Assembly: GCA_951828385.1 (NCBI GenBank)
Contig: OX639973.1
Coordinates: 4,765,200-4,829,199 of the forward strand
Length of the DNA: 64,000 nt
Direction of reading: 5' to 3'
Source of the DNA: an uncultured Poribacteria bacterium
GTDB taxonomy: Bacteria; Poribacteria; WGA-4E; WGA-3G
In this document: one piece after another, positions 20,152-40,365 of the stretch
How positions within the stretch are numbered: position 1 is the first letter of the stretch
Layout: each line of letters begins with the position of its first letter
Notes under the pieces: model-generated
The model's input: the letters and a program-made list of their open reading frames with translations, nothing else
Told to the model about the DNA's origin: nothing
The model's database searches: none
Program-made: the position numbers and the translations under genes

Positions 20152-20526
20152 ATGCGAAATAAGCGGAACACTCTGTGTGGAATATTAGGAATTTTCTTTG
20201 TCCTTTCTGTTGTCCTTATGGCATCAGGTCAACCGGCACCATCGGACTCAGGAGTTATAACAGTCACCGAAAAAATAGATGTAGGGGAGCTAAACAGAAA
20301 TGTGAGGGACTTGAGCAAAAATATGAAGGAGCTAAGCGAAAATCTGAAGGAGTTAAACAAGAACGTCCAAGAACTTAACAAACAGTTTGCCAGACTTGAT
20401 GAAAGGACAAAATTGCATTCTAATTTACTTTATATACTTATAGCGGGAGTTTTCGGCATCCCATTGACGCGAGTACTATGGTCTACATTCAGACTTCCCA
20501 CAAAACCGCATCAATCTCCGCCATAA
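20152..20526 (+). CDS. Small exported or membrane coiled-coil protein
   Basis: 124 residues from the ATG at 20152, which has AGGAG seven bases upstream; an in-frame upstream ATG lacks one. Residues about 5-27 are a signal peptide or first membrane helix. Residues about 40-85 are a heptad coiled coil built from repeats of the form x-x-L-[SN]-K/E-N-[VLM]-K/R-E-L. A second hydrophobic stretch (LLYILIAGVFGIPLTRVL) follows. No family recognised. Its last 38 bases overlap the end of the converging restriction-modification gene. Confidence 0.7.
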   Translation: MRNKRNTLCGILGIFFVLSVVLMASGQPAPSDSGVITVTEKIDVGELNRNVRDLSKNMKELSENLKELNKNVQELNKQFARLDERTKLHSNLLYILIAGVFGIPLTRVLWSTFRLPTKPHQSPP

Positions 20527-23569: not shown

Positions 23570-23589
23570 AAGCAGCAAGGTTTGTAGTA

Positions 23590-23652
23590 GCGCAATTCTG
23601 CGGCGTACTCGCCCAAATGCAACGTGCATTATTGCGCATTGCGTAAGTCCTA
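23590..23652. repeat. Hairpin repeat with 30-base module and ACTTACGCAA-type end
   Basis: GCGCAAT and ATTGCGC flank the module GCGGCGTACTCGCCCAAATG (continuing CAACGTGCAT, 23600-23630). GCGTAAGTCCT follows directly. The same module occurs at 40721, 40753 and 43022. It lies immediately upstream of the type IIG gene and probably carries or disturbs its leader. Confidence 0.6.
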
Positions 23653-24861: not shown

Positions 24862-24871
24862 GGGAGACGAA

Positions 24872-25507
24872 ATGGAGACACTTAAATTACTTATATTTGT
24901 CGGGACAGAAGGGATTTATCACGATCACGCAGGAAACGGACAGTTCCTCACATCAATGCTCAACGGCACCGACATTATTGCAGCCGATTTCTCACAAGAC
25001 TACGGCGTGCTCGCAGATGGACTCGAAGGATATGACACTGTGCTTTTCTACACCGACGTTGGGGAACTTACGAAAGCACAAGAGAATGGCCTGCTCAACT
25101 ATATCCGAACAGGTGGTGGCTTCTTCGGGCTACATACCGCAGCCGCTTCGTTCCGGGAATCCGAAGGCTACCACGGCATGCTCAACGGGTTTTTCAACGG
25201 ACACAGTCCCTATATGGACTTCACCGTTAATGTCAGCGATCCGAATCATCCCATCACCGAAGGGTTAGCCGATTTTCAGGCGACAGATGAACTCTACTAC
25301 CTCGAGCACAACCCAGATGCATCGCACCATCTGATGCACGCCTACGATGAAACAAAAGATGAAACCCACGTCATGGCATTCCATCATACCTACGGCGACG
25401 GGCGAGTCTTCTACTTCGCACTCGGACACGATATGGCAGTCCTTGAAAACCCAAGTTTTCAGACAGTCATCCGCCGTGGCGCGCTATGGGCAGGCAATCG
25501 GATTTAG
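24872..25507 (+). CDS. ThuA-like (trehalose utilisation) domain protein
   Basis: 211 residues with the class-I glutamine-amidotransferase-like ThuA fold: Y-D-T-V-L-F-Y-T-D-V-G at about 55, G-G-G-F-F-G-L-H-T-A at about 88-97, N-G-F-F-N-G-H, and the C-terminal A-F-H-H-T-Y-G-D-G-R-V-F-Y-F-A-L-G-H-D. ThuA domains are tied to disaccharide and polyol metabolism; the biochemical activity is unclear. GGGAG before the ATG. Second gene of the operon with the zinc dehydrogenase. Confidence 0.9.
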   Translation: METLKLLIFVGTEGIYHDHAGNGQFLTSMLNGTDIIAADFSQDYGVLADGLEGYDTVLFYTDVGELTKAQENGLLNYIRTGGGFFGLHTAAASFRESEGYHGMLNGFFNGHSPYMDFTVNVSDPNHPITEGLADFQATDELYYLEHNPDASHHLMHAYDETKDETHVMAFHHTYGDGRVFYFALGHDMAVLENPSFQTVIRRGALWAGNRI

Positions 25508-25952: not shown

Positions 25953-26213
25953 ATGGATAAGCCGATGCCAAATTCCAAATCTATAACCCAACTTGCAGCT
26001 TATTGGAAACGAAATGGGCTCAGCACGCGCGCCAGTTATGTTCTCGCCAAAGCGGGTGTATCGGAAACACAGTTGGTAGCGTACCGTGAAATATCTGCAC
26101 TCTTATGTTTGAAAAACTGCGGCTCCGAAACTGCCAAGGAAATTTGGGATTTTATGGAAAATTCTGAGCGAGAAGTGAAAGAGGTAAAATTTGAAGAGCT
26201 CATCCCGAACTAA
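25953..26213 (+). CDS. Small helix-hairpin-helix protein, RNA-polymerase alpha-CTD-like
   Basis: 86 residues. The stretch LSTRASYVLAKAGVSETQLV followed by I-S-A-L-L-C-L-K-N-C-G-S-E-T-A-K-E-I-W resembles the alpha-CTD/helix-hairpin-helix fold (L-S-x-R-A-x-x-x-L-x-x-A-G and K-N-x-G-x-x-x-x-x-E-I), which binds DNA non-specifically. No polymerase domain is attached. No Shine-Dalgarno precedes the ATG at 25953; the internal ATG at 25965 is an alternative. It opens the BREX-like operon and overlaps the next gene by 23 bases, so translation is likely coupled. Confidence 0.65.
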   Translation: MDKPMPNSKSITQLAAYWKRNGLSTRASYVLAKAGVSETQLVAYREISALLCLKNCGSETAKEIWDFMENSEREVKEVKFEELIPN

Positions 26214-27774
26214 GTTTGTACCTGTAACGCCAAACGAAATTCAACCTGTAACGATCCGTTATGCCCGTGAAACAGATGTAGCCGGTGCAAAGGATCTCGC
26301 TGACCGGCATCGGGTGGAATTAGGCTTTGTTCGGACATCTGTACTACACGAAGCACACCAAAAGAAATGGCTCCTCGTTGCTGTTCGGGATGAACAGGTC
26401 ATCGGATTCGCTAATTTTCGTATACGTCAGGATAAAAATGCAACGCTTTATGATATTATTGTTGACGAATCCTATCGTAAGCAGAAAATCGGAAAACGAC
26501 TTGTCCAAAGGTTAGCGTGGTTAGTGAACGTAGCTGGAGGCGAACATATTCGACTCAAGTGCCCACAATCACTTCCCGCAAACGCGTTTTACCAGAAATT
26601 GCAATTTACACGGACAGATACCGAAATCGGGAAAAAACGCCCCTTAAACGTATGGCACCACTTTCTCAAACCATTGCCCCGGCGGTTTGAATTCCATGAA
26701 AACGGTGACGGATTTTTACATAGCCCACCAGAGCATTCCCCACATTTTTTCGCTTCTGCCACAATTGCCCCTGGAGAAATACGAAAGATCTACGAACTCT
26801 GGCATACGCATGCCCACGATTTTGAGTGGCCCCGAGGTAAACCGAATCCGTTCCAACGGTTGTTAATTTCACCCGTACGTGCCAGCCCTTCAACACTCGC
26901 GTTTGTGCGTGAACTTAAGCGTAGTGGAGAAACAGAAGAGGTAATGTTTGATTCTGGGGGCTTTTTTGTCCAAAAAGGGGATATTACCTACAACGAACTC
27001 TATTCAAAATTACGCGAGATTTACCATGCAGAAGACTGGGCGGACATCTACATTCTTCCAGACAATCCACCGTTGAGTAAGGATTCTATGTCTGATGCTG
27101 AGACTAAAATCCGACAGACAGTTCAGGGAAGTGTCAGTTTTGCTTACCAATTGCCGTCTGAGCTCCGTGGAAAGGTGATGCCAGTAATCCATGCCAAACA
27201 GCCTATACATCTGGAGTATTGCCTGAAAAACTATGAAACTTTAATGGTGGACTCACACCGTATCGGTTTCGGGTCTTTTTCAACCATGGGCACCACGAAT
27301 TCAATTAACCGGGTCAATGTGGATGTGTTGCGTTTGCTTGATGATTTAGTCCCATTACTCAATGGAAGTTGGCTTCATAGTTTTGGAATTTCAACACCCC
27401 CTGCAGTTTTCTGTTTGGCAAAAGTTGGTATTAGTACCTTTGATTCCAATAGTTGGATGCGCTCAGGGGGTTATGGCTATGTATTTTTTCCATTTGTTTT
27501 TGGACGTATGATTGACCGCAAAACGCGGAGGTATACACCAATCTATAAGGATGAGCTAGAACCGTTCAAATTGAATACAGGACACCGTTGTCCGTTTTGC
27601 AAATCTTTTGACAAGCTTTCAGATCGGAATGGGCGGTGGCTTCGGATTATGCACAACCTGACAGTGATGACAGAACTGGAGGTTCATCACCGCACACCGC
27701 AGTGGGAGATTCTAGAGGAGTATTCTCCTCATTATCACCGAATGCTGGAAATAACTAGGTTGTCACAAGATTAA
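26191..27774 (+). CDS. GNAT acetyltransferase fused to a tRNA-guanine-transglycosylase (DpdA-like) domain
   Basis: 527 residues, probably from the TTG at 26191 (GAGG upstream). Residues about 20-160 are a GNAT domain: acetyl-CoA site R-K-Q-K-I-G-K-R-L near 96-104 and a terminal A-F-Y-Q-K-L-Q-F. Residues about 215-500 read as a TGT-type TIM barrel: F-D-S-G-G-F at 253-258 (base-recognition Asp254), A-D-I-Y-I-L-P-D near 284-291, S-F-G-I-S-T-P near 397-403, and F-D-S-N-S-W-M-R-S-G-G at 417-427 (Asp418 at the nucleophile position). H465-R-C467-x2-C470 and H488 could form the zinc site, with His replacing the usual first Cys. TGT enzymes exchange guanine for 7-deazaguanine bases in tRNA, or in DNA for DpdA. 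Family call is from motifs. Confidence 0.7.
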   Translation: MKSSSRTKFVPVTPNEIQPVTIRYARETDVAGAKDLADRHRVELGFVRTSVLHEAHQKKWLLVAVRDEQVIGFANFRIRQDKNATLYDIIVDESYRKQKIGKRLVQRLAWLVNVAGGEHIRLKCPQSLPANAFYQKLQFTRTDTEIGKKRPLNVWHHFLKPLPRRFEFHENGDGFLHSPPEHSPHFFASATIAPGEIRKIYELWHTHAHDFEWPRGKPNPFQRLLISPVRASPSTLAFVRELKRSGETEEVMFDSGGFFVQKGDITYNELYSKLREIYHAEDWADIYILPDNPPLSKDSMSDAETKIRQTVQGSVSFAYQLPSELRGKVMPVIHAKQPIHLEYCLKNYETLMVDSHRIGFGSFSTMGTTNSINRVNVDVLRLLDDLVPLLNGSWLHSFGISTPPAVFCLAKVGISTFDSNSWMRSGGYGYVFFPFVFGRMIDRKTRRYTPIYKDELEPFKLNTGHRCPFCKSFDKLSDRNGRWLRIMHNLTVMTELEVHHRTPQWEILEEYSPHYHRMLEITRLSQD

Positions 27775-27786
27775 AGTAAGGAAAAT

Positions 27787-28620
27787 ATGTCACGAATACA
27801 TATCCTAAAGGGATTTTCTGGAATAGAGGGTGCGTTGTGGGTATTGAAATTTTACCCAGGACTTCCAAGCCGTCAGGAGATGGCTCGTACTGCCACTCAA
27901 AACGGTTATGTCGTAACGAATAAGAGAGATTATGACATCTTACAGGTCCTTGGCGAGTGGGAACTTGCAGATGTCGAAAAACGGCAATTCACCTCACGAG
28001 GAAAGGAATTTTACTCTCTATGGGAAATGAAGCGAGATGTTGCAATTGATGTGTTACATGGGTTGCAATACAGTTTGTGGACCGAACATGCTCCCGACCA
28101 AAATCTTGCATCGTGGGCTTACCAGAGGGTGTGTAATTATCTCTGGGAGTATCATATCTTGCCCAAACCACAGGATTTAATTACTTACATCTATGACAAT
28201 CGAGAGGATTTAGGAGTGATTCGTGGTGATATAGCGAATGCTTTTAGTTCTAAATCTGTCAATGGTGCTTACGATTGGATGCTCCCTCTTTCCCCGCCAG
28301 TGTTTAGTGGTGTTGGTGAAACAGCGACCGGTAGAAGAAATTTCACGAAAGCGGTTTTCACACGGCGTTCCTATTGTTCTGCTGCACTTTTCCTAATGGG
28401 CTTAGATTGGGTTGCTCGAGAGGCAAAAATTAAGTTTGGAGAACCAGTGGAAATTAATGATATGCGGAGAACTCAAGTGTGTTGTTTTTGCCTACTTGAA
28501 GAGAGTGGATTTGATTTTATGTTGAATGAAACACTTCGCCGCTTTGCATTTCTGTCAGTTGAGCAGATCGGGCGACTTTTTATTATCATTAACCGAACCC
28601 CAAAAATTGCCGATTTTTAA
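27787..28620 (+). CDS. Unknown protein of the BREX-like operon
   Basis: 277 residues, no family recognised. The N-terminal half looks like a helical, winged-helix-type region (SRQEMARTATQNGYVVTNKR, DILQVLGEWELADVEKRQFT). The middle is aromatic-rich (ASWAYQRVCNYLWEYHI) and a C-terminal C-C-F-C lies near residue 240. AAGGAAAAT precedes the ATG, 12 bases after the GNAT-TGT gene and 19 before the large ATPase. By position it could be the analogue of BrxA or an accessory subunit, but sequence alone does not show that. Confidence 0.7.
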   Translation: MSRIHILKGFSGIEGALWVLKFYPGLPSRQEMARTATQNGYVVTNKRDYDILQVLGEWELADVEKRQFTSRGKEFYSLWEMKRDVAIDVLHGLQYSLWTEHAPDQNLASWAYQRVCNYLWEYHILPKPQDLITYIYDNREDLGVIRGDIANAFSSKSVNGAYDWMLPLSPPVFSGVGETATGRRNFTKAVFTRRSYCSAALFLMGLDWVAREAKIKFGEPVEINDMRRTQVCCFCLLEESGFDFMLNETLRRFAFLSVEQIGRLFIIINRTPKIADF

Positions 28621-28639
28621 ATTCTAAGAGGTTTGCGTA

Positions 28640-31600
28640 ATGTCATTAGCAGATATTATTCAAAAAGAACGAACTATTTATACACCTTTAGCTCAGGAAG
28701 TGGCTGATTCACCTGATGAGCAGGAGCAAAAATTTAGGTTTCATGTTGATACCTATGTCGCTATTGCAGATGTAAAGAGTCGATGGGAGGCTATACTCAA
28801 CAATCTCTTAAAAGGACAATCCGTCACTGGATTAATCTATGCGGATACCGGCTATGGTAAAACGTCAACAGGAGCATCCTTGTGGAATTACGCCGAAGAG
28901 AATGGAATTGTAACAGTACCACCGTTCATGTGGAATAGCCTCGCGGATCTGCTTGTTGCAACGCATGGTTGGGTTCTTTATCGATTAAAGCATACGCGGC
29001 CTGACCTTGTTCCTAAATTGGAGGAGAAGTATAAAGCCGTGGTTGCGTCTGGCGAAGAAGTCTTGGCAGAGAAAATGAGTCGTGAGAAATCTTTGTCGGT
29101 TGAACAAGCACAGGAAGCAACTGCATTCGTGAAAGCAGAAGGACTGTTACGAGAAGATTTATCACCACATGGACTTTTGGATTATCTTCGTTTCGCAACT
29201 GAGCAGGTGTTAGCTGCACACTATAAAGGGCTCATGATTCTGCCGGATGAATTTCAACTCTTTAGGAACAACCCAGATACTGCACAAAATTATGACCGTC
29301 TCAAACAGTTTATTTTTGGAATCCATGGTGAAGAAAAACTCCCAATTGGATGTATTGCATTAACTTATAGAGAGACGTTTGCGAGTATCAGGGAAAGTGA
29401 ATACAATTATCTACTTGCAAGATTTGCCAAGCCAACGGGAAACCTTATTGATTTGCAAAGTCTCTATGGAGAACCAGGGTTTGCCAAGAGTCTCTGGAAT
29501 AAATTGACGGATCTGTGTAGCTTATCCCCCTCAGAAAAGTCCGCGATTGATAATGATGTTTTGGATGCCCTAGGGCAGTTTTTACGGCATTCGCGGGCAA
29601 GAGCACTAATGAGCGGACCACGTTCAGTTATAGAGACATTTAGGCGTGCGGCACTACACTACACAGAGAAAAATTGTCCCTACACTCTTTTCGATTTTTG
29701 TGAGGATTATCTTGCAGGAAATATTGCCTTTAGCAGCCAACATACCGAGGCAGCGCAGGCACATACGCAGATAATGACACTACCCAGTATTAATACTCCA
29801 GAAAAACAAAAAATAGTCAAATTACTATGTGTCCATCCAGAAGGGGTACCACCAACACTATTTAAAAAATATGGTATATTGGCATCTGATAGAGATGATA
29901 TCGTTCAATCTTTATTAGGAGTACATGTTATCACAAAGGGGACAAGCACACCAACTCTGGCATGCTATAGAGACGATTTACTTGGGGTAGATAGTCTAAA
30001 TGAAATCCTTAAACGACTCAGAGAACGTTTTAACCCAGAAGACAAAACGATTCACTATAAAAGTGTACGTGCTTTTCACAAACATATATTTCCCCAGATT
30101 TTTACTTCGAGAAAGCAAGGTACACTCTTAGGATGGACAGGTATACAAGAGTTAAGGGAAAAATCAGATGGTGGTTGTACAATAAACCTGACAGGGGCTC
30201 CTCCAAGTTTGCGTGAGTACCCTAACCGAACATTAAGAGTTGACATTAACACACAGGAAATTACCCGCCCACCTTTGATATCTAAATCTCAGTTACAAGT
30301 TCAGTTTATTCTGGATACTGTTGGCGACGTTATCAACTCTTGTCACGTTGCCACAAACGGACTTGAGTTCCGGTTTAACCTCCGTAAACCAATCAATCCG
30401 CAGAAAGTACCGGAAGATATTGGAAAACTGACTGAGTTGTTTCTTCCAGAGAACATAACGCCGCTGCTTCTGCTTTCTATACTTGATTTTTTTGATGAGG
30501 AACCAATTATTGATATAGTAAAAGGAGCTAAACAGGAAGCCCAAGTTCATTCTTTGACAGATCTAATCCGTGGTGAACTTATCCGTTGCTTCTTTTCTCT
30601 AGAAGTCAAGGAGAACGCGGTTGAGCACTCTGCAGATCTTACTTCTGTCCCTGCTGGGAAGGATTTTGTTGAAGGCGCATTAAAGGTCTTGGTTCCAAAG
30701 CAATTTCCGAACTATCATGCCTTGGCCATTGCTAAGGGATGGGAAAACAGTTTAGGAATATATAAAGATGCTTTCGGCAAGGCTTTTACTCTTGGCATGA
30801 AACGTGGTAAGGACCCAATCAAAGCCGGACCCAAATTATTTAACATGGGTCAAGTTGCTTTTGCAAACTTCTGTGATGGTGTAGCTCGTAACTTGCTGAG
30901 GGTTGAATATGGTTCTAGTAAGCAAGATGAGGCGGATATCTACTTCATCCTCCACCCATTTGAGGAAGCGTTGGTCGAGCGTCTTGAAAGCAATTCAAGT
31001 ACTATGTTTGTTAATGGCAAACAGATTGAAACGACAGAACTCTCGGAGGTTTATAAGTATGCTAAAAATCTTGGATATCTTGACAAAGAGATTGATGAAT
31101 TGCTAGCGATTCTTAAGGCGCGAGGTATAGTAGAACAACAACAAGTGAGTGGCACTGAGCACCTCTACCTAATGGAAACGTCTATCAATTTGGCAGATTT
31201 AGAAGCCAAACTGGGAGCAATTGAGGAGGATGTGACATTAGCAGAATCAAATGGTTTTCAGTATCAATGCCCTGATCTCTCCTCTGCTCGTAAATTGATT
31301 CAGACTTTGGGAATTGAAAACGACGAAATGCAGAAGGACGCATTGCGCCAGAATCTGAATTTAGCGGAGGAACTCTTAAAGGAAAAGTGCGCGGAATGGA
31401 TAAAGAGAGGGCATGAAAATCTTAGGCAGAAGGTTAATATTCTAGAAACATTTCATCTTCAAATTCCGACGGTTTTAGAGCAACAAACAGGTCATCCGCT
31501 GACTGAATTTTCTCAGATTCTTTTTCAGAGTGTACAACCGGAAGTGAAACGCGCTTATACAAAGATTTCTGATCGAATTAAGAGAATTCAGGGAAGAGTA

Positions 31601-32560
31601 CGCGAGACTTGTGATAGAGAAGTTGTGACGTATCAATTAGATCAAACGCCGCGCAAGGCAATTGAGACTGCTTCGAGATTACAACAAGCTTGTGTCCTCG
31701 TTGATGTGGATATTGAAGAACTTGATCAGGAACGAAAAGATGCTGAGGAATTGCATCAACTCTTTAGGTACTGGCGCGATTTAGCACACCAGGTAGAAGG
31801 TGAAGGGCAACGAATGGTTAACGACCAAGAAGAGCCTGCTGTGAAAAATGTGGTTGATCAGTTTAATGTTATACAAAAACAGATACGAGATCACCTCGGG
31901 GAGAAGCGAATACCTTTCAAGGATGTTTTGGGTGCCTATGAACATTTCAAGGTGCAGATTGATGAGATTAAGTCTGAATTTGATCAATACTTTGGCGGAA
32001 AGGAAAAAGTGTTTATCATGGACCAAGCCAATATTGAGAAATTGTTGGCGAAGTTGATTGATACGCCGCATGTTGGAGTAAAATGGAATCCTTCAGATGT
32101 TGATGGGTGCTACCGTGAAACGCGAGAAAAGGCTATAGGAAAATTGAGAAGTGTCGTTGATATTGCTCTAAACCAACTTGATATGGTGAACCGTGCTTTG
32201 CTGGGACCAATTGAGACTTATGCTGTTCCCGAATCGCTCAAAGCTAACGCGATTCAACTTCGCGATGACATTGGACAATATTCCGAAGAATTTCAAGGAA
32301 TCCTACCTAACCTTATCATAGAAAACGTTGACCCGCAATTATCGAATTGGATTTCAGAACTCATTACTCTACGTCAAAAAGGTGAAGATATTCGGCAGAG
32401 ATGGGAAGATATTGAAAACGATATGACCGGGTTCAGAAATCAGTTAAGTCAAAGTACCAAGAGATTGCATGATGCCGTAAATCCACTGCTTGAGGATGGA
32501 ACCTTTAATTCACCTAGTGAGATTATTGAGCGTTTGGAAGAATTATACCGGTTACGTTGA
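28640..32560 (+). CDS. BrxC/PglY-like large P-loop ATPase
   Basis: 1306 residues. Walker A A-D-T-G-Y-G-K-T at 68-75 and a Walker-B-like G-L-M-I-L-P-D-E-F near 197-205, then the sensor-like S-G-P-R-S-V-I-E-T region, make an AAA/ORC-type ATPase. The remainder is long and helical, with coiled-coil stretches between about 850 and 1300. Size, order and context fit BrxC (type 3, DUF6079-like) or PglY of BREX/Pgl phage defence, where this ATPase is a core subunit of unsettled mechanism. AGAGGTTTG precedes the ATG. Assigned from architecture and neighbours. Confidence 0.72.
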   Translation: MSLADIIQKERTIYTPLAQEVADSPDEQEQKFRFHVDTYVAIADVKSRWEAILNNLLKGQSVTGLIYADTGYGKTSTGASLWNYAEENGIVTVPPFMWNSLADLLVATHGWVLYRLKHTRPDLVPKLEEKYKAVVASGEEVLAEKMSREKSLSVEQAQEATAFVKAEGLLREDLSPHGLLDYLRFATEQVLAAHYKGLMILPDEFQLFRNNPDTAQNYDRLKQFIFGIHGEEKLPIGCIALTYRETFASIRESEYNYLLARFAKPTGNLIDLQSLYGEPGFAKSLWNKLTDLCSLSPSEKSAIDNDVLDALGQFLRHSRARALMSGPRSVIETFRRAALHYTEKNCPYTLFDFCEDYLAGNIAFSSQHTEAAQAHTQIMTLPSINTPEKQKIVKLLCVHPEGVPPTLFKKYGILASDRDDIVQSLLGVHVITKGTSTPTLACYRDDLLGVDSLNEILKRLRERFNPEDKTIHYKSVRAFHKHIFPQIFTSRKQGTLLGWTGIQELREKSDGGCTINLTGAPPSLREYPNRTLRVDINTQEITRPPLISKSQLQVQFILDTVGDVINSCHVATNGLEFRFNLRKPINPQKVPEDIGKLTELFLPENITPLLLLSILDFFDEEPIIDIVKGAKQEAQVHSLTDLIRGELIRCFFSLEVKENAVEHSADLTSVPAGKDFVEGALKVLVPKQFPNYHALAIAKGWENSLGIYKDAFGKAFTLGMKRGKDPIKAGPKLFNMGQVAFANFCDGVARNLLRVEYGSSKQDEADIYFILHPFEEALVERLESNSSTMFVNGKQIETTELSEVYKYAKNLGYLDKEIDELLAILKARGIVEQQQVSGTEHLYLMETSINLADLEAKLGAIEEDVTLAESNGFQYQCPDLSSARKLIQTLGIENDEMQKDALRQNLNLAEELLKEKCAEWIKRGHENLRQKVNILETFHLQIPTVLEQQTGHPLTEFSQILFQSVQPEVKRAYTKISDRIKRIQGRVRETCDREVVTYQLDQTPRKAIETASRLQQACVLVDVDIEELDQERKDAEELHQLFRYWRDLAHQVEGEGQRMVNDQEEPAVKNVVDQFNVIQKQIRDHLGEKRIPFKDVLGAYEHFKVQIDEIKSEFDQYFGGKEKVFIMDQANIEKLLAKLIDTPHVGVKWNPSDVDGCYRETREKAIGKLRSVVDIALNQLDMVNRALLGPIETYAVPESLKANAIQLRDDIGQYSEEFQGILPNLIIENVDPQLSNWISELITLRQKGEDIRQRWEDIENDMTGFRNQLSQSTKRLHDAVNPLLEDGTFNSPSEIIERLEELYRLR

Positions 32561-32581
32561 AGAACTTGACGTTCCAAGGAA

Positions 32582-33130
32582 ATGAATTGGCTAACTTATC
32601 ATAAACAACTCTTACGATTGGCAGAGACCACCGAAACGCTGACCCCTTCTCAAATCTCTGCACAGGATGCTGTTCTGAATGCTGTCGGGGGATGGGAACG
32701 ATGTATCAACTTGTGCGGTAAACCTGGGACTGGGAAAACCTTTTTGATGCACTATCTCCATCACCGAGCAGATCTTGTCTATTTTTCAGATCAGGCCCGC
32801 TATGATGCAAGAGTTTCCGGCGATTCAGTTGTCGCGATTGATAATGTGCCCTACACACGTCAGGAGTCGCGTAGGCTTTACGATAAAATCCGGTGGGGAG
32901 AAACGGATTACACAGGTCCTGTGAATGTCATTCTCATCACACGCGAACCGATTGATGATGCAGTGCATCGGATTGAACTAACGTTGACAGATACCGACAT
33001 CGCCCACATAGAAAATATCATACGCCAACAATTTGGTGAATCTGATTTTGAAACCTTCAGTCAGTATGATCACCAACGTTCCGGGCTGTGGTGGTACGTC
33101 AAAACCCTTTGTTGTAGCATAGACTGTTAG
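32582..33130 (+). CDS. Small P-loop ATPase, BrxF-like
   Basis: 182 residues. Walker A G-K-P-G-T-G-K-T at 46-53 and Walker B V-V-A-I-D-N at 83-88, followed by V-N-V-I-L-I-T-R. A small stand-alone ATPase next to a BrxC-like giant is the arrangement of BREX type 3 (BrxF). AAGGA precedes the ATG, 21 bases after the large ATPase gene. The reading frame ends 135 bases before an insertion sequence. The C-terminus looks complete for a BrxF-sized protein, so the insertion seems to lie between genes. Confidence 0.7.
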   Translation: MNWLTYHKQLLRLAETTETLTPSQISAQDAVLNAVGGWERCINLCGKPGTGKTFLMHYLHHRADLVYFSDQARYDARVSGDSVVAIDNVPYTRQESRRLYDKIRWGETDYTGPVNVILITREPIDDAVHRIELTLTDTDIAHIENIIRQQFGESDFETFSQYDHQRSGLWWYVKTLCCSIDC

Positions 33131-33312
33131 TCTGTGTGCCTATGCGTCCGCAAACGAACAGTTTACGGCGGAAAAACTCAGGCTCCATTACTAACTAAAA
33201 TCTCATAGATAGCAATTTGCGTTGTTATTAGGGTGCCTACACACAAGTGAATCTATTTCTGAAACTATAGTGAAACCTACAATTAAGTAGACACTTTTCC
33301 TTTGAAGTCATA

Positions 33313-33341
33313 TTGAGTAAAACATAGAAATGTAGTAAAAT
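33313..33341 (+). promoter_or_regulatory. Transposase promoter in the IS5-like element
   Basis: TTGAGT (33313-33318), 17-base spacer and TAAAAT (33336-33341), about 75 bases before the transposase ATG at 33418. Confidence 0.45.
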
Positions 33342-33417
33342 AGTGGAATAAAAGGCGATACTTTACATCCCTTTATTTTCACTTTTGATACCTATTTCCT
33401 TTATGAAAGGTGCTCTT

Positions 33418-33840
33418 ATGGCAAATACGTCTGAAAAGTCTCCGAGATACAATGGTATTCCGAAGCAAGTTTCGCGTAAGGATTTTAATCGTTATATCTT
33501 GCCACATCTGAAGAAACGCATCAAAGGTCCAAAGCCGAAACTTTCTTTCTACAAGATATTCAACTATATTCTCTATGTTTTGCATACCGGTATTCAATGG
33601 GATCAACTCCGCACACGACGGAATGAACTCCATTGGTCGAATGTCTATAAATGGCATAATCGCTGGTCAAAAGATGGTTCCTATGAGAACCTTTTTCAGG
33701 CCTCCATCATCCACTTACTTGATACCGACAAACTTGACACGACACGCCTTCACGGAGATGGTTCAAACACCGTTGTGAAAAAGGGGGTGACGGTATCGGA
33801 TACTCCGGACACAAACATCAGAAAGGCGAAAAAGAGGTGA
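33418..33840 (+). CDS. IS5-like transposase, N-terminal frame
   Basis: 140 residues from the ATG at 33418 (AAAGGTG upstream). It contains the DUF4096-like N-terminal region (PHLKKRIKGPKPKLSFYKIF, HTGIQWDQL) and the first catalytic Asp in L-H-G-D-G-S-N-T. After AAAAAG-GGGG the frame loses homology. Re-reading one base back gives G-G-D-G-I-G-Y-S-G-H-K-H, the expected continuation. This is therefore either a programmed -1 frameshift site or a one-base loss in the G run. Confidence 0.8.
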   Translation: MANTSEKSPRYNGIPKQVSRKDFNRYILPHLKKRIKGPKPKLSFYKIFNYILYVLHTGIQWDQLRTRRNELHWSNVYKWHNRWSKDGSYENLFQASIIHLLDTDKLDTTRLHGDGSNTVVKKGVTVSDTPDTNIRKAKKR

Positions 33841-34286
33841 CGATCACCGATAACCATGGGTTCATCATAGGTCCGATAACGATGAAACCCGTCAACGCAC
33901 ATGATACAACGATTTTGCCGGAAGCCTTCAGCGATATAATCGCTTTTAGTCAACGGATGGGTATGGATCTTTCGGGTTCTGCTCTCACGCTTGATTCTGC
34001 CTTTGATTCTAAGGCGAATCATCAGTTGATTAGAGAACACGGATTGAAACCCGTGATTTATCCGAACCGTCGGAATGCTAAAGAACCCATCGTCATCGCT
34101 CGTAAGTTTCGCTGGTTTGACAAAGAGATATACAAAGAACGCTATAAGGTCGAGCGAACTTTCGGGTGGCAAGACACTTATCGAAAACTCGCTCTGAGCT
34201 ACGATAAACTTAAAGAGACGCGTTTAGGGTTTCGTCATTTGGCATATTCTATGATTAACTTTCGTATAACTTTCAACGATTCATGA
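33837..34286 (+). CDS. IS5-like transposase, C-terminal frame
   Basis: 149 residues, overlapping the first frame at GTGA. It has the second catalytic Asp in T-L-D-S-A-F-D-S and the catalytic Glu in Y-K-V-E-R-T-F-G-W, completing a DDE set with the upstream frame. Internal initiation at GTG is possible, but a fusion by -1 frameshifting upstream would give one full transposase of about 285 residues. Confidence 0.8.
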   Translation: MTITDNHGFIIGPITMKPVNAHDTTILPEAFSDIIAFSQRMGMDLSGSALTLDSAFDSKANHQLIREHGLKPVIYPNRRNAKEPIVIARKFRWFDKEIYKERYKVERTFGWQDTYRKLALSYDKLKETRLGFRHLAYSMINFRITFNDS

Positions 34287-34439
34287 CGCGTACTCGCTAT
34301 GAGTTCTTTAACAAAAAACAATTCGTAGGGGGTTTTTGCTTGGGTGTTTCTTCAAGGTCCCCTCGCCCGTCTTTCAAAATGTGTCCTATTATTTTTAGAG
34401 GTCACTATAAATACTAAAGTTTGGACAATATTGTAAAGT

Positions 34440-35363
34440 TTATGCTGCCTTGTCAAAAGGCAGAGGTGTATCGTCTTGCAAACTCACATTAATATTCTGC
34501 GAGTTTGTTTTTTCATTGAACTTAGCGAAAAATGACGACATCGCTATTTGCGAGCGGAGATAAGCCACCCGCAAACCTTGTGTAAGTTTTCCGGGGCGAT
34601 ACCAATGAATGCCGAGATGTTGACAGACTTTCTCAACGCTTATCGTTTTCTGCGTCGCGTTGGGTGTTGTGAATATCAACTTCGTGAGACTCGCTGCGAC
34701 GAAACTCAGTTGAACGAACCGATTGATGCTCTTGCGAGATTTCAGGCGATAGGCATCGAAGCCGAAGTGCTGTTTGACATCTCGAAAGGCAGTTTCTATC
34801 TGCCACCTTTGCCGATAATACTCTATAATCTTGGGTATCTCAAGCGTCAAATCTGTTGTAAAGACGCAGAAATACCGATACGGTTTTGAGGCTTTCGGGC
34901 GGTTTCGGATGATGACGAGTCGGACATCTGCATCACACATCTTCGTCCGCACGACCTTTGAGGCAATCGAATAACTTTTTGCGCCTATATCTATGTCCTT
35001 ATATCGGAGTCGGCGAATATCAAGACGGTCTCCGTATTTCCGAGGTCGCCCGCGTTGGCGACGTTTAGGAGGTTTCGGTAAACGATAGAAAACAGCATTA
35101 GATTTCGCACGACATAAGATATGATGTCCGAAACTTAGAGCCATTGTAAAGACTTTTCGCCATGCGAAACCACGATCAAAGATGATAAGTCCCCGGGGGA
35201 TGTTTGAACAGATACGCTTCAGAACCGGAAAACTTTTATCGCGGATTGACTGTGGCAGAATGAGTTTCACCCAGACGGGGAATAGATGCCACTGCGTCGC
35301 TGTCTGGCAAAGTAAACCTAATGCCCCAAACTCGTGTCCGTAATGAAACTTCGATTGATTCAC
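34440..35363 (-). CDS. IS4-like transposase, C-terminal part (frameshifted)
   Basis: 307 residues beginning at a GTG used here only as a nominal start. The second catalytic Asp is in L-I-I-F-D-R-G-F-A-W. Y-R-Q-R-W-Q-I-E-T-A-F-R-D-V-K matches the IS4 Y-x2-R-x3-E-x6-K signature exactly. Homology continues upstream without a stop into RNFSYQKHRV, showing this is the rest of the frame at 35380. Confidence 0.8.
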   Translation of the reverse strand: MNQSKFHYGHEFGALGLLCQTATQWHLFPVWVKLILPQSIRDKSFPVLKRICSNIPRGLIIFDRGFAWRKVFTMALSFGHHILCRAKSNAVFYRLPKPPKRRQRGRPRKYGDRLDIRRLRYKDIDIGAKSYSIASKVVRTKMCDADVRLVIIRNRPKASKPYRYFCVFTTDLTLEIPKIIEYYRQRWQIETAFRDVKQHFGFDAYRLKSRKSINRFVQLSFVAASLTKLIFTTPNATQKTISVEKVCQHLGIHWYRPGKLTQGLRVAYLRSQIAMSSFFAKFNEKTNSQNINVSLQDDTPLPFDKAA

Positions 35364-35379
35364 ACGATGCTTTTGATAA

Positions 35380-35718
35380 CTAAAGTTGCGGAAAAAAATG
35401 CAGCCCCCATTGGGATTTCCCAGTTTTCAGTGCCTTGGTTTCATCGTAGACATAAACCCAATGTGTAAAAGCGTCTTGAATACGTCTGATGAGAAGTGCT
35501 GCGACAGCATCGGCGTTCCATTGCCCACGGCAAAGGAACTTCGGAAATGACCAATACTGGGTTTGCGAACCACTACATTGATAAAGTTCCGTCAGTGTCC
35601 CACGCCCGTTATTGGCGATGAATCCGAAGATAAACGCTTGGAAAAGGGCGAAGTTTTGTTGATTGAATAAATGTCGAAAATCCGATAGAATATCTCCTAA
35701 GCAGAAAAGGAGGTTCAT
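35380..35718 (-). CDS. IS4-like transposase, N-terminal part (frameshifted)
   Basis: 112 residues from an ATG preceded by AGGAGG. It holds the first catalytic Asp in Y-V-Y-D-E-T-K-A. The frame breaks at a run of seven T (minus strand, just before the stop), where six T would join it to the downstream part as HFF-RNFSYQ. The required shift is +1, which the slippery run does not naturally give, so the copy is probably inactive or the run is mis-assembled. Confidence 0.75.
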   Translation of the reverse strand: MNLLFCLGDILSDFRHLFNQQNFALFQAFIFGFIANNGRGTLTELYQCSGSQTQYWSFPKFLCRGQWNADAVAALLIRRIQDAFTHWVYVYDETKALKTGKSQWGLHFFPQL

Positions 35719-35924
35719 GTTTACTTTCCTTTCAAAACAGTGGTATGTTTTTATGAAAGGATACCTGCTTTTCTGCTTTTTCGCACTATAATTCTAAAAA
35801 TTGTCCAAACTTTAGTATAAATAGCCTACTCAATCCGTTTATAACATTGACAAATCCCGAAAAAGGGATTAAAATTATTAAAAATCGGTTCTATCTATAG
35901 AGGTAAGAAAGAAAACAGGAACCT

Positions 35925-36338
35925 ATGACTGAAGGAAAATCAGGTAGAAACTGGCGCGAGATTGTAACTCCTGAATGGTCGCTCGCCATTTTAATCCATG
36001 TAATTGTCTTGGAGATACTGTATGTATTTCTCCTACTCAGACCTAACGGAGAAACCCTAAATACTATCATATTAAATACAAGCGCGGCCTTACCCATTTT
36101 TACATTTATCGCCGTGATTCTCATGGAAATATGGGAAGTTGCTTGGGAGGTTATCATGTTAGTGAAAAGACTTTTTGAGAAGCTCGAGCACCGGAGACTC
36201 GAAAAAGCGCGTTTAGAAGGGTTAGCTGAAGGCTTATCCGAAGCGGAGAAAAAACATGCAGAATGGGTGGAATGGGCTAAAAACGGTCAGGATAAACCGC
36301 AACCCAAACCCCCAAAAGCTCCAGAGACGGATAGTTAG
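35925..36338 (+). CDS. Small two-helix membrane protein in the defence operon
   Basis: 137 residues. Hydrophobic stretches at about 18-40 (SLAILIHVIVLEILYVFLLL) and 50-80 (LPIFTFIAVILMEIWEVAWE) are followed by a charged helix (LEHRRLEKARLEGLAEGLSE) and a proline-rich tail. AGGA precedes the ATG. No known BREX subunit looks like this; it may be operon-specific or brought with the insertions. It is 42 bases from the PglZ gene. Confidence 0.7.
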   Translation: MTEGKSGRNWREIVTPEWSLAILIHVIVLEILYVFLLLRPNGETLNTIILNTSAALPIFTFIAVILMEIWEVAWEVIMLVKRLFEKLEHRRLEKARLEGLAEGLSEAEKKHAEWVEWAKNGQDKPQPKPPKAPETDS

Positions 36339-36380
36339 GTAGGCACACTCTCTGATCCCGAGCACAAAGGATAGAATGAA

Positions 36381-37475
36381 ATGGCACAGCAATTGTGCAC
36401 GATCCCCTGCATAACTGAAATCCCGGAAAACTATCGCGCTTTGTGGGAACTTTGCCTTACCGATGTTTGGTGTCCAACATCGCTTGAGGAGTGGCGAAAA
36501 CGAATTGATTCACCTCGCGAAATTGACCCAGATACAATCCTTTTTGTGAACCTATCTCCTTCAGACAGAGAAGAATTGACACAGGTTTTCGGTTTTCCAA
36601 CAGTTGAATTTCCTGAACTTCCTTCGATAGAACAGGTCAATGCAGCATTACCAAGCCGCTTTGAGACAACACATCTATTCAAACAGTCCGATGTCGCTGC
36701 AGAAATTACAAAACGGATTCATCAGGAATTACCACAGATAGTCATTCTATTGGTTTTCGATGGCTTATCCTTTTATGATGTCGTAGATTGGAAACTACCC
36801 CAAGCGACACTGGAACCGTGTCTTGTGGATGGGTTAAGTGTCACGAATAGTGCTATGCAACGACTCATCGGTTCACCTGTTTTAACACATAGACTTTTTG
36901 AGTTGGGATACGTCCGGCGGTTGGGCTTTTCATATTGGGAACGCGCAGCAAATGTATTGACCGATGCGCTTTTTGCTGAGTTTCCACCGAGCCAACTGCA
37001 TCGCATGACAACCTTTGACGAAGTTTTAGGGAAGATAAAGACATCTGGATGGGAAACACATACATACGTTCAGATTATCCGTTCTGGACTTGATGGGGTT
37101 TGCCATGTTAACAGAGAACGCCCAAATATTAAGTCGATTCTTAGCGATCTAAAGCGAGATGTTCTCTTTCTCATTGAGGTCTTACAGGAAACTGAGAAAT
37201 CATTTCGTCTTTTTATTACTGCCGACCATGGGATTCTTTGGTACGCTGACCAAGACATTGTTCCTCTGGCACAAGAGAAATTCAATGCACGGTACACTGA
37301 CGGATCTATCACACGAGGGGATAATCTACTAACGCTGAATACCGATGAGGGCACCTACACTGTTTTAACTGGCGACAAAGTTATCGCGAAACAGCGTAAA
37401 GTGACAGAGTGGGGCTTTCACGGTGGAGTCTCAGCACAAGAATCATTAGTCCCATTTTGGGATGTCCGTCAATAA
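36381..37475 (+). CDS. pglZ: PglZ-domain protein
   Basis: 364 residues, alkaline-phosphatase superfamily PglZ domain. Metal Asp127 is in L-L-V-F-D-G-L-S, the nucleophile-region Thr155 in L-S-V-T-N-S-A-M-Q, D-H-G at 282-284 in F-I-T-A-D-H-G-I-L, and the PglZ hallmark H-G-G-V-S-x2-E-S-L-V-P at 347-358. PglZ is the one subunit common to all BREX and Pgl phage-defence systems. This one is short compared with the 600-900 residues usual for BREX, keeping mainly the catalytic domain. Fifteen bases separate it from the HerA-like gene. Confidence 0.87.
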   Translation: MAQQLCTIPCITEIPENYRALWELCLTDVWCPTSLEEWRKRIDSPREIDPDTILFVNLSPSDREELTQVFGFPTVEFPELPSIEQVNAALPSRFETTHLFKQSDVAAEITKRIHQELPQIVILLVFDGLSFYDVVDWKLPQATLEPCLVDGLSVTNSAMQRLIGSPVLTHRLFELGYVRRLGFSYWERAANVLTDALFAEFPPSQLHRMTTFDEVLGKIKTSGWETHTYVQIIRSGLDGVCHVNRERPNIKSILSDLKRDVLFLIEVLQETEKSFRLFITADHGILWYADQDIVPLAQEKFNARYTDGSITRGDNLLTLNTDEGTYTVLTGDKVIAKQRKVTEWGFHGGVSAQESLVPFWDVRQ

Positions 37476-37490
37476 AGTGAGAAATTTATA

Positions 37491-38699
37491 ATGGCTGAAG
37501 TGAATCTACGAGTCGGTACTGACTACGAAACTGAAGATATAGCGTATATCCGAGCAACTGGTTCTCGTGCTGTTTTTATCTGTGGCAAGCGAGGTTCCGG
37601 AAAAAGCTACACACTCGGCGTGATTGCAGAAGAATTATTTTCACAGGAACGCGGAAAAGCCGTTCTGATTATCGCCGATCCCATGGGCATCTATCACACA
37701 ATGGTTTCAGCCAACGAAAGCCAGTCGGATGAGGTTCGACAGGCTGGATTGCTGACGGAAGGGTTTCCTGTCCGTCTGATTGTACCGGGTGACCCACTTG
37801 CCTGTTTCGGAGACGCTCAAATTGTGAATAGACTCCAAACGAACGGCGTTGAAGTAACATCGCTCTGGATTAACGCCCATGACCTATCAGCAGATGCATG
37901 GTGTGAACTGTTTGATTTGGAAATCAATAATGCTATGGGAATAGCGATGTGGCGGGCGGTGGATACCCTTCAGGAAACCCATGAAAGTTTCAATATTTCA
38001 GATATCCTAACAAGTCTCCGTAAAGATACGCGCGCTAAAAGCACCACAGTAGAAGCACTCGAAAATCGCTTGACAGCTGCCCAAAGATGGGGATTTTTCT
38101 CTGAGGAACCAACCCACTTAACAGATGTATTTTCCTTGGAACACATTAACGTTTTGGATTTAAGTGTTATTGACGCGGGTACTAAAGGATTGCGAAACTT
38201 AGTGTTGGATATTGTTGCGCGGCGGTTGTTTACAGAACGGACGCGGATGCGCCGGCGCGAAGAATTTGGAATGGAAACAAGTCTTCCCCGAGTTTGGATG
38301 GCAATTGACGAAGCACATCAGTTTATACCGCAGGGCAAGGGATCCTTATGTAAAGAGATGTTAATCCGTTGGGTGAAAGAAGGTCGCCAGCCCGGACTGA
38401 GTCTTGTCGTCGCGACGCAACAACCCTCCGCAATTGATTCCGAATTGCTTTCTCAGTGTGACCTGATCATGGCACATAAAATTACAACATGGGACGATAT
38501 CAACGCACTTGATCGGTTGAGTGCGACCTACATGGAAGGTGATTTAAAGGGATATATCCGACAACTTAACCGTCAGGGTGAGGCTCTTTTGGTTGATGAC
38601 GAGACAGAGGCCGTTAACATAATTCGCGTCCGTCCACGGCGCAGTGCACACGGCGGGGCTGAAATTCAGGAGAAAACGACAAGCCGTTCCTTTTTCTGA
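37491..38699 (+). CDS. HerA-type (DUF87) DNA translocase ATPase
   Basis: 402 residues. Walker A G-K-R-G-S-G-K-S at 32-39, Walker B W-M-A-I-D-E-A-H at 269-276, and the HerA/FtsK-type V-A-T-Q-Q-P-S-A-I-D with a following sensor region. HerA-like hexamers pump double-stranded DNA and often pair with nucleases in defence systems. No nuclease is evident beside it. It closes the plus-strand operon. No standard BREX type has this gene as a core subunit, which sets the module apart. Confidence 0.87.
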   Translation: MAEVNLRVGTDYETEDIAYIRATGSRAVFICGKRGSGKSYTLGVIAEELFSQERGKAVLIIADPMGIYHTMVSANESQSDEVRQAGLLTEGFPVRLIVPGDPLACFGDAQIVNRLQTNGVEVTSLWINAHDLSADAWCELFDLEINNAMGIAMWRAVDTLQETHESFNISDILTSLRKDTRAKSTTVEALENRLTAAQRWGFFSEEPTHLTDVFSLEHINVLDLSVIDAGTKGLRNLVLDIVARRLFTERTRMRRREEFGMETSLPRVWMAIDEAHQFIPQGKGSLCKEMLIRWVKEGRQPGLSLVVATQQPSAIDSELLSQCDLIMAHKITTWDDINALDRLSATYMEGDLKGYIRQLNRQGEALLVDDETEAVNIIRVRPRRSAHGGAEIQEKTTSRSFF

Positions 38700-39036: not shown

Positions 39037-40365
39037 CTACACCATTTCACGCGCAGGATAGTGCTTATCACCGGGGGATACATCCGTCGGATCGTTCAAC
39101 ACAGCTGCTTCTGGCGGCACCATAATCTGGTGATCGTTCACCGGATCGTCGGTTTCTGACCGCCACTGCTCTAAACGGTTTCGCATCTCGGCAAGGACAT
39201 CCGCATAATCCGGATTCCCCGCGAGGTTGTGCGCTTCCGACGCATCAAACACAACATCGTACAACCGCTCCGATTCAACAGGTTGATCCGCCCAACCGTG
39301 TTCCAGCATAAAGGTTTTACTGATACTATCGTCACAGTTCGGCAATGCCCATTTCTCCGCGTCGTCATAGCGGCGGATATATTTCCATCTCTTCGTCCGA
39401 ACAGCGCGCTGCGGTTCATAACAGCAGTGATAGTTGACTTCAGCGAAAATAGCGTCACGCGTATCGTCCGCCTCACCACGGACCAACGGTAAAACGGAAG
39501 CACCTTGCAACCATGCAGGCGCATCAATACCTATCAGTTCGCAAATAGTCGGGAACAGATCAATTTGGCTCACTAGTCCATCCACGACTTGTCCGCCATC
39601 AAAACCGCCGGGACCGCGGACGATCAACATCACACCGATACCGTGGTCGCTGAGATGGCATTTCATTCGGGGGAAGGCGAGCCCATGGTCGGTTGTGCAT
39701 ATCACGAGCGTGTTATCAGCGATCCCATTTTCCTCAAGTGCATCAAAAACCACGCCCATCTTTCTATCCAGTGTACGTGCGGCGTCTATGTATTCCGCCA
39801 TATCCTGACGGGTGGTAGGTGTATCAGGGAAGGTTACTGGCGGTTTCACGTAGCGCGGGTCTGTTTTCGGTTCGCCCTCGGGTGGCGGATCAAACCCTTT
39901 TGCGCGCCGATGCGTTTCACCAAAGCCGACATCTAAGAAGAAGGGCGCATCATGTTTCTCAGCGATGAAATCGCGTGCCCGTTCTTCTGCACCTGCACGC
40001 ACGGTGCCTTGAGATAAAAGTCGTTGGTAACCTGTCTCTTTCAAATCTCGCACGACGTGCTGGAATCCTGCTAAGGCAGTAGTGTACCCAGCTTGATTCA
40101 ACGTATGAGGTATGAGATGCTCTGGAACTGGAAGACTCCATCCGCGATTTGCCAACCCGCCCATACCGCAACTATGCGCCCACTGTCCGGTGAGGAGTGC
40201 GGCGCGCGATGGCGAGCAGGTCGGGTTCGCGCAGAACGCGTTTCGGAACACGACACCCTCTTCCGCAAGTTTTTGTATGTTCGGAGTCGGTATCGCGTGT
40301 CCGTACGGTTGCACATACCGTCCCGTATCGTGTGAATGAATATAGATTATATTTGGCTTGTTCAT
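39037..40365 (-). CDS. Sulfatase
   Basis: 442 residues. The formylglycine motif is Cys50-S-P-S-R54 in NPTCSPSRAALLTGQ. D-H-G-L-A-F-P-R-M-K carries the later metal site. The N-terminal metal region reads I-Y-I-H-S-H-D-T-G-R, with a single Asp where most sulfatases have a pair, as in heparan N-sulfatase-like proteins. C-terminal LYDVVFDASEAHNLAGNP is typical. No clear ribosome site before the ATG at 40365. It stands alone between the defence operon and a small antitoxin-like gene. Confidence 0.9.
   Translation of the reverse strand: MNKPNIIYIHSHDTGRYVQPYGHAIPTPNIQKLAEEGVVFRNAFCANPTCSPSRAALLTGQWAHSCGMGGLANRGWSLPVPEHLIPHTLNQAGYTTALAGFQHVVRDLKETGYQRLLSQGTVRAGAEERARDFIAEKHDAPFFLDVGFGETHRRAKGFDPPPEGEPKTDPRYVKPPVTFPDTPTTRQDMAEYIDAARTLDRKMGVVFDALEENGIADNTLVICTTDHGLAFPRMKCHLSDHGIGVMLIVRGPGGFDGGQVVDGLVSQIDLFPTICELIGIDAPAWLQGASVLPLVRGEADDTRDAIFAEVNYHCCYEPQRAVRTKRWKYIRRYDDAEKWALPNCDDSISKTFMLEHGWADQPVESERLYDVVFDASEAHNLAGNPDYADVLAEMRNRLEQWRSETDDPVNDHQIMVPPEAAVLNDPTDVSPGDKHYPAREMV

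What the first reader, a model, noticed from the sequence alone, without database searches (positions are those of the whole stretch)
25953..38699. A BREX-like operon without PglX, led by a base-exchange enzyme and closed by HerA
Eight same-strand genes with tight spacing or overlaps: helix-hairpin-helix protein, GNAT-TGT fusion, 277-residue unknown, BrxC/PglY-like 1306-residue ATPase, BrxF-like ATPase, small membrane protein, PglZ and HerA. BrxC-BrxF-PglZ is the skeleton of BREX type 3, but no PglX-type methyltransferase or BrxL/BrxA is present, and a TGT-like enzyme is in its place with a HerA translocase added. The simplest idea is a BREX-type defence in which self DNA (or tRNA) is marked by a modified guanine instead of N6-methyladenine. 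Motifs are read directly; the system-level role is inferred.
Basis: partly seen in the sequence, partly recalled or inferred. Interest (0 to 1): 0.92.

Follow-up and report, generated by a model that had tools for sequence, protein, structure and literature searches.

The report
BREX-related defence with base-swapping self-mark
A bacterium of the candidate phylum Poribacteria carries a phage-defence operon that probably protects its own DNA by swapping guanine for a modified 7-deazaguanine; the system was first described in January 2026, but its marking genes turn out to be a portable set also linked to an unrelated defence system (Druantia), and they point to a new, acylated DNA base that can be tested.

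Summary
The operon is real and conserved. It is a Candidatus Poribacteria member of the 'BREX-Related Capture' (BRC) systems described computationally in January 2026 (PMC12839542): GNAT-TGT, BrxA/SspB-like protein, BrxC-like ATPase, small P-loop ATPase, PglZ and HerA. It is not BREX and not Dpd. New here: (1) TGT, GNAT, SspB-like protein and BrxC-like ATPase form a portable cassette. Relatives in cyanobacteria, Acidobacteria, planctomycetes, Chloroflexi and Poribacteria pair it with Druantia genes instead of PglZ/HerA, and the TGT tree needs at least three effector switches. (2) GNAT accompanies TGT in every sufficiently complete locus. (3) An archaeal plasmid copy carries queC, queE, queD and queF beside the operon, pointing to preQ1, whose amine a GNAT could acylate. 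(4) A phage replication cluster carries a GNAT-TGT pair. (5) The operon occupies a site that is empty in 25 congeners and holds an R-M-like operon in another. The predicted mark, an N-acylated preQ1 in DNA, is untested.

The parts
25953..26213 (+). 86-aa leader protein with one RNA-polymerase-alpha-CTD-like (helix-hairpin-helix) domain; putative regulator
   Evidence: PF03118 E=0.0045; homologous to the N-terminus of 683-689-aa alpha-CTD/sigma70-region-4 proteins leading the operon in L050 and L051
26191..27774 (+). GNAT-TGT fusion (TTG start): acetyltransferase domain about residues 20-146, TGT domain about residues 185-520; predicted base-exchange and base-acylating enzyme
   Evidence: PF00583 2.8e-13; both catalytic Asp (D254, D418) and HxCxxC...H zinc motif invariant in 26 homologues; AlphaFold model matches Ard1/RimI and TGT structures
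27787..28620 (+). SspB/DUF4007-like (BrxA-like) protein, probably DNA recognition
   Evidence: AlphaFold pLDDT 89.5; top three PDB matches are SspB (6juf, 6lb9), probability 0.94-0.99, next 0.18
28640..32560 (+). BrxC-like large AAA ATPase
   Evidence: PF10923 E=0.025; Walker A G71/G73/K74/T75 and Walker B D203/E204 invariant in 19 homologues; orthologue in L023 annotated BREX ATP-binding protein
32582..33130 (+). small P-loop ATPase (BrxF-like; takes the place of the BRC STAND NTPase)
   Evidence: AAA_22 E=3e-4; orthologues in most complete PglZ-HerA loci, none matched in Druantia-linked loci
33280..34316 (+). IS5-like insertion sequence (not part of the system)
   Evidence: PF13340; 99% copy at G000:C1:3867272; absent from relatives
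34381..35823 (-). DDE_Tnp_1 insertion sequence with 28-bp terminal inverted repeats (not part of the system)
   Evidence: PF01609 1.3e-18; inverted repeat 34405-34432/35797-35824; about 74% copies elsewhere in genome
35925..36338 (+). small membrane protein, variably truncated, not core
   Evidence: 60-144 aa in close relatives, not found in distant ones; no family hit
36381..37475 (+). compact PglZ, predicted nuclease/phosphoesterase effector
   Evidence: PADLOC PglZ E=0.005; D127, T155, D238, H242, D282, H283, H347 invariant in 11 homologues; top PDB sequence match is a response regulator of the PglZ-domain kind, E=0.07
37491..38699 (+). HerA/FtsK-type DNA translocase
   Evidence: DUF87 6.8e-12, PADLOC HerA 5e-23; 46% identical in Haloplanus
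23830..25507 (+). left flank of insertion site (dehydrogenase and ThuA-like genes; not part of the system)
   Evidence: conserved in 36 of 38 genomes of the genus
39037..40365 (-). right flank of insertion site (sulfatase-like gene; not part of the system)
   Evidence: conserved in 35 of 38 genomes of the genus

Best explanation
A restriction-modification-like phage defence built of two modules. Modification module: the SspB/BrxA-like protein and the BrxC-like ATPase select and open DNA sites, the TGT domain exchanges a guanine for a 7-deazaguanine (most likely preQ1), and the GNAT domain acylates its aminomethyl amine, giving a self-mark. Restriction module: HerA with the small P-loop ATPase moves or captures unmarked invading DNA and hands it to PglZ, a two-metal phosphoesterase-fold enzyme, for cutting. 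The alpha-CTD-like leader probably controls expression. Shown here: gene content and conservation, catalytic residues, folds, module swapping, and linkage to queC/E/D/F. Inferred: DNA as substrate, preQ1 and its acylation, nuclease action, and defence function.
For: Both TGT aspartates and the zinc motif are invariant in 26 homologues. The best solved relative is a DNA-guanine transglycosylase, and the TGT lies apart from tRNA TGT in the tree. A TGT+GNAT pair sits beside a DNA polymerase processivity factor and near a DNA polymerase in a viral contig. Another relative lies on a contig read as phage that carries queC and queE. The Haloplanus plasmid has queC-queE-queD beside the TGT and queF 35 bp after GNAT. 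GNAT occurs with TGT in all sufficiently complete module loci. The TGT/GNAT/SspB-like/BrxC-like cassette also pairs with Druantia DruE/F/L, with at least three forced effector switches. SspB-like plus BrxC-like ATPase also form part of the modification side of Ssp, whose modification module pairs with two restriction modules (PMC8092258, PMC12839542). PglZ keeps its full two-metal site. The insertion site is empty in 25 congeners, and G048 holds a methylase/nuclease/helicase operon there. Host genomes have QueC and QueF.
Against: No nucleoside or phage data exist. The TGT profile match is weak and no curated DpdA cut-off is met. queF next to the module was seen in one locus only, and QueF versus QueF-like is hard to settle by sequence (PMC6884629). 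GNATs are promiscuous and the best structural match is to protein N-acetyltransferases, so GNAT may act on protein. Two IS elements separate PglZ and HerA from the upstream genes in this genome, so its restriction half may be poorly expressed.
Confidence: 0.6

Rival explanations
1. The TGT modifies tRNA rather than DNA: the system acts through translation (guarding or altering tRNA during infection), and PglZ/HerA restrict DNA independently of it.
For: TGT is a tRNA-enzyme family; Foldseek puts tRNA TGT structures at the top.
Against: Best sequence relative in the PDB is DpdA; a GNAT-TGT pair sits in a phage replication cluster; the TGT is paired with two different DNA-targeting effector sets and with an SspB-like protein. 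The structural library is dominated by tRNA TGT entries.
Confidence: 0.15
2. The mark is put on invading DNA: TGT/GNAT tag foreign DNA and PglZ/HerA or Druantia attack tagged DNA.
For: No direct evidence separates tagging of self from tagging of foreign DNA; a GNAT-TGT pair on a phage could be read as escape or as target.
Against: Known Dpd and Ssp logic marks self DNA (PMC12839542, PMC8092258); host queF/queCED linkage fits bulk marking of the host or plasmid genome.
Confidence: 0.1
3. As the BRC authors propose, BrxC-, BrxA- and BrxB-like proteins are the sensing/restriction complex and the small NTPase drives base insertion; GNAT/TGT is an optional add-on and the base is preQ0.
For: Published model (PMC12839542); no DpdC is present in G000.
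Against: BrxC-like and SspB-like proteins travel with TGT/GNAT into Druantia loci where the small NTPase was not matched; queF in the Haloplanus locus argues for preQ1 rather than preQ0.
Confidence: 0.12

Closest known systems
BREX-Related Capture (BRC) system (Rakesh and Krishnan 2026, PMC12839542)
   Same: Same component set: PglZ, BrxC-like ATPase, small NTPase, DUF4007/BrxA-like protein, HerA, GNAT and TGT.
   Different: Window adds an alpha-CTD-like leader and a variable membrane protein; GNAT and TGT are fused. The paper reports HerA in all loci and its main text mentions neither preQ0/preQ1 biosynthesis genes beside the loci nor Druantia.
Dpd (7-deazaguanine in DNA) system
   Same: A TGT-family base-exchange enzyme as predicted self-marker.
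   Different: Window TGT does not reach the DpdA model; no DpdC in the genome, no DpdD-K proteins matched; a GNAT is present.
Ssp phosphorothioate system (SspABCD with SspE or SspFGH)
   Same: SspB-like protein plus BrxC/SspC-like ATPase with a modification enzyme; modification module pairs with different restriction modules.
   Different: No sulfur chemistry genes found in the operon; the mark is predicted to be a base.
Druantia (DruE/DruF/DruL systems)
   Same: Relatives of the window's first genes sit in loci with DruE, DruF and DruL.
   Different: The window itself has no Druantia gene; its effectors are PglZ and HerA.
BREX types 1-6
   Same: PglZ and a BrxC-like ATPase.
   Different: No PglX/BrxX methyltransferase and no BrxL; PglZ is compact; HerA present.

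Membership tests
BRC system | HerA/FtsK translocase (universal in BRC) | tested here: met
   DUF87 6.8e-12; PADLOC HerA 5e-23
BRC system | TGT | tested here: met
   Weak Pfam match but catalytic and zinc residues invariant; TGT fold; PDB top hit DpdA
BRC system | GNAT | tested here: met
   PF00583 2.8e-13, over cut-off; Foldseek Ard1/RimI
BRC system | DUF4007/BrxA-like tripartite protein | tested here: met
   No Pfam DUF4007 hit, but the AlphaFold model's only confident PDB matches are SspB, which PMC12839542 assigns to DUF4007
BRC system | PglZ | tested here: met
   Weak profiles; seven metal-site residues invariant
BRC system | BrxC/DUF6079 ATPase | tested here: inconclusive
   PF10923 below cut-off and no DUF6079 hit; Walker motifs invariant; Haloplanus orthologue annotated BREX ATP-binding
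BRC system | active STAND NTPase | tested here: inconclusive
   P-loop ATPase present with conserved Walker motifs; STAND class not separately shown
BREX | PglX/BrxX methyltransferase | tested here: not met
   None in operon or called beside relatives; the Type ISP enzyme at 20489-23629 is separate
BREX | BrxL or BrxHI/HII helicase | tested here: not met
   No such match for operon proteins
Dpd | DpdA at family cut-off | tested here: not met
   No NF041059 hit for the window protein nor in G000 at E<=1e-10
Dpd | DpdC (PF03883) | tested here: not met
   Absent from G000
Dpd | DpdD-K restriction proteins | tested here: not met
   No PADLOC or NCBIfam Dpd hit in the operon
Druantia (for relatives L034/L035, L058, L072, not the window) | DruE helicase with DruF/DruL | tested here: met
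   L035 DruE full length, E=0; DruF 2e-24 and DruL4 4e-19 in L034/L035; L072 DruF and DruL; L058 DruE3 4e-224
Phage defence | protects cells against phage | not testable with these tools
   Only indirect: insertion site shared with an R-M-like operon

The most novel reading that the evidence does not exclude
A portable four-part cassette (TGT, GNAT, SspB-like protein, BrxC-like ATPase) writes a previously undescribed DNA base, an N-acylated preQ1 (7-acylaminomethyl-7-deazaguanine), as a self-mark that at least two unrelated effector sets, PglZ-HerA and Druantia, can use, and that some phages copy to escape.
Probability: 0.35. Interest if true: 0.88.

Novelty: new member of a known kind. Interest (0 to 1): 0.62.

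Why it matters
BRC is known only from one computational survey. These comparisons suggest which of its genes write the mark and which cut, link the marking genes to Druantia, and predict a specific DNA nucleoside that can be sought in two named strains whose plasmids carry the cassette. If true, it would add a GNAT-acylated 7-deazaguanine to known DNA marks, show that one marking cassette can serve different restriction machines, and suggest how some Druantia systems could tell self from non-self.

Tried and rejected
Ordinary tRNA TGT: rejected; the genome has its own tRNA TGT elsewhere and the window protein does not group with it. Dpd membership: rejected. BREX membership: rejected (no PglX or BrxL). 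Type ISP methylase upstream as the missing marker: not supported; not seen beside the operon in relatives. Profile search of the 277-residue protein and the BrxC-like ATPase against PDB sequences was uninformative; structure prediction resolved the former. Viral scan with the single window protein found nothing; the alignment scan found two. A class-wide haloarchaeal search could not be centred on the plasmid, so queF linkage in archaea rests on one locus. Testing whether BRC-type HerA exists without TGT in Poribacteria was inconclusive because contigs end. No search in the held library found TGT linked to Druantia, or acylated preQ1 in DNA.

Full report
WHAT IS THERE. Eight + strand ORFs lie at 25953-38699 as stated. 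The window is from a 6.66-Mb single-contig genome; near-identical loci carry Candidatus Poribacteria titles. Family scans give GNAT (2.8e-13), a sub-threshold TGT match (0.0075), HerA (DUF87 6.8e-12; PADLOC HerA 5e-23) and weak PglZ (0.005) and BrxC (0.025) matches. Two insertion sequences (33280-34316 and 34381-35823, the latter with 28-bp terminal repeats) sit between the small ATPase and the membrane-protein gene. Relatives lack about 2.55 kb there: homology stops at 33267 and resumes at 35818-35828.

CONSERVATION. Within the phylum the operon is accessory: five congeners carry complete or nearly complete copies at 86-87% TGT identity, two more genomes have partial ones (G045 83%, G051 74-79%), and four genomes have a second type at 35-37%. 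A genome-wide scan found 28 loci. The PglZ-HerA type occurs in Poribacteria, Gemmatimonadota, Latescibacterota, Chloroflexota and Eremiobacterota and on a Haloplanus plasmid. The site between a ThuA-like gene and a sulfatase is 10.0-13.5 kb wide in carriers and under 1.7 kb in 25 non-carriers (for example 74 bp in G077, 68 bp in G066). In G048 the same site holds a 12.5-kb operon with a DNA methylase, a PD-(D/E)XK nuclease and a helicase. This is how defence loci usually behave. G062 is empty there but keeps a HerA relic elsewhere.

ENZYMES. The TGT keeps both catalytic aspartates (D254, D418) and an HxCxxC...H zinc motif in 26 homologues. Its best PDB sequence match is a DNA-guanine transglycosylase, and the model matches GNAT and TGT folds. 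PglZ keeps D127, T155, D238, H242, D282, H283 and H347 in all 11 homologues, the pattern expected from established knowledge of the alkaline-phosphatase superfamily. The 277-residue protein is modelled at pLDDT 89.5, and its only confident PDB matches are SspB (probability 0.94-0.99, E about 0.03; next 0.18). SspB is the DUF4007 protein of Ssp (PMC12839542), a DNA nickase needed for modification (PMC8092258). Nicking is not claimed for the window protein. The leader is alpha-CTD-like; in L050, L051 and L054 its place is taken by large alpha-CTD/sigma70-region-4 proteins, and in L055 and L059 by sigma70 region 2+4 proteins.

MATCH TO LITERATURE. This gene set is the BRC system of Rakesh and Krishnan, January 2026. 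The paper describes PglZ, DUF6079, STAND NTPase, DUF4007, HerA, GNAT and TGT in 45 taxa, with HerA in all and TGT/GNAT in a subset, and proposes a preQ0-type mark. Its supplement could not be read, so whether this species is listed is unknown. No other paper in the held library uses the name.

WHAT THE COMPARISON ADDS. First, the cassette. Loci with TGT, GNAT, SspB-like and BrxC-like genes but no PglZ or HerA carry Druantia genes: a 1910-aa DruE (E=0), DruF (2e-24) and DruL (4e-19) in Poribacteria, DruF and DruL in L072, and homologues of these in cyanobacteria, Acidobacteria and a planctomycete. Two Anaerolineae loci have a further arrangement, with a DruE3-like helicase (4e-224) in L058. The small ATPase was not matched in the Druantia-linked loci, suggesting it belongs with PglZ-HerA. 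On the TGT tree the PglZ-HerA and Druantia labels interleave, with at least three forced switches each; long branches make the deepest splits unsure. Ssp offers a precedent: SspBCD pairs with SspE or SspFGH (PMC8092258). Second, the GNAT. It is fused to or near the TGT in every module locus long enough to tell, about 29 including the phage pair; loci without it end at contig ends or lie outside the module. Third, the chemistry. The Haloplanus plasmid has queC-queE-queD beside the TGT and a QueF 35 bp after GNAT (PF14489 3.7e-18; TIGR03139 81.9 bits against a cut-off of 86.9; ESKSLK motif kept). An acidobacterial Druantia-type locus has queD 37 bp upstream of the TGT. All 85 Poribacteria genomes have a QueC-family match, and all 12 Poribacteria tested, plus the plasmid, have QueF. 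preQ1 in DNA is already known, at about 30% of G in halovirus HVTV-1 (PMC6884629); it carries a primary amine that a GNAT could acylate. Fourth, phages. A viral contig has a GNAT-TGT pair next to a processivity factor and near a DNA polymerase, helicase and exonuclease. A related TGT lies on a 144-kb contig read as phage, with queC, queE and a FolE-like gene.

MECHANISM AND LIMITS. The best reading is a self-marking restriction system with separable writing and cutting modules (confidence 0.6). Acylated preQ1 as the mark is a narrower prediction (0.35). DNA as the substrate, the acyl group, PglZ cutting and phage protection are inferred. The insertion sequences may uncouple PglZ and HerA from the upstream promoter in this genome, so the window copy is not the best one to test.

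VERDICT.

Noticed in passing
L034:12020-19972 with L035:2-7121; also L022, L060-L068, L071, L072: Druantia-type loci (DruE/DruF/DruL or their homologues) that carry a GNAT-TGT, SspB-like and BrxC-like cassette; no DruM methylase was looked for by name. Not found in the literature searched.
   Followed up: partly
L058:2-16255 and L070:3-11468: Third arrangement in Anaerolineae: TGT cassette with separate GNAT beside an approx. 1100-aa protein of unknown family, with a DruE3-like helicase in L058.
   Followed up: partly
window 20489-23629 (-): Type ISP restriction-modification enzyme (PF18135 2.6e-87) 2.3 kb upstream of the operon; not seen beside the operon in relatives.
   Followed up: partly
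L089 (G048:C99:91800-106400): An R-M-like operon (N6/N4 methylase, PD-(D/E)XK nuclease, ResIII helicase) at the same chromosomal site where congeners carry BRC: a defence hotspot.
   Followed up: partly
L040:3880-18564: Dpd-like locus (DpdJ- and DpdH-like proteins, PLD nuclease) with an archaeosine-type TGT in a distant Poribacteria relative; resembles the Dpd-like systems mentioned in PMC12458937.
   Followed up: no
L083-L088: DpdA over cut-off in 10 of 85 Poribacteria genomes, none of them carrying BRC; numbers too small to claim exclusion.
   Followed up: no
G028:C1 (L038, L039, L078-L081): A 144-kb contig read as a jumbo phage with TGT, queC, queE and a FolE-like gene; the TGT is about 31-32% identical to the window's.
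   Followed up: partly
L050:7365-9416, L051:7364-9433, L055:6250-9159, L059:7750-10014: Large sigma-factor/alpha-CTD-like proteins lead or flank the operon in relatives, possibly dedicated regulators not listed among BRC components.
   Followed up: partly
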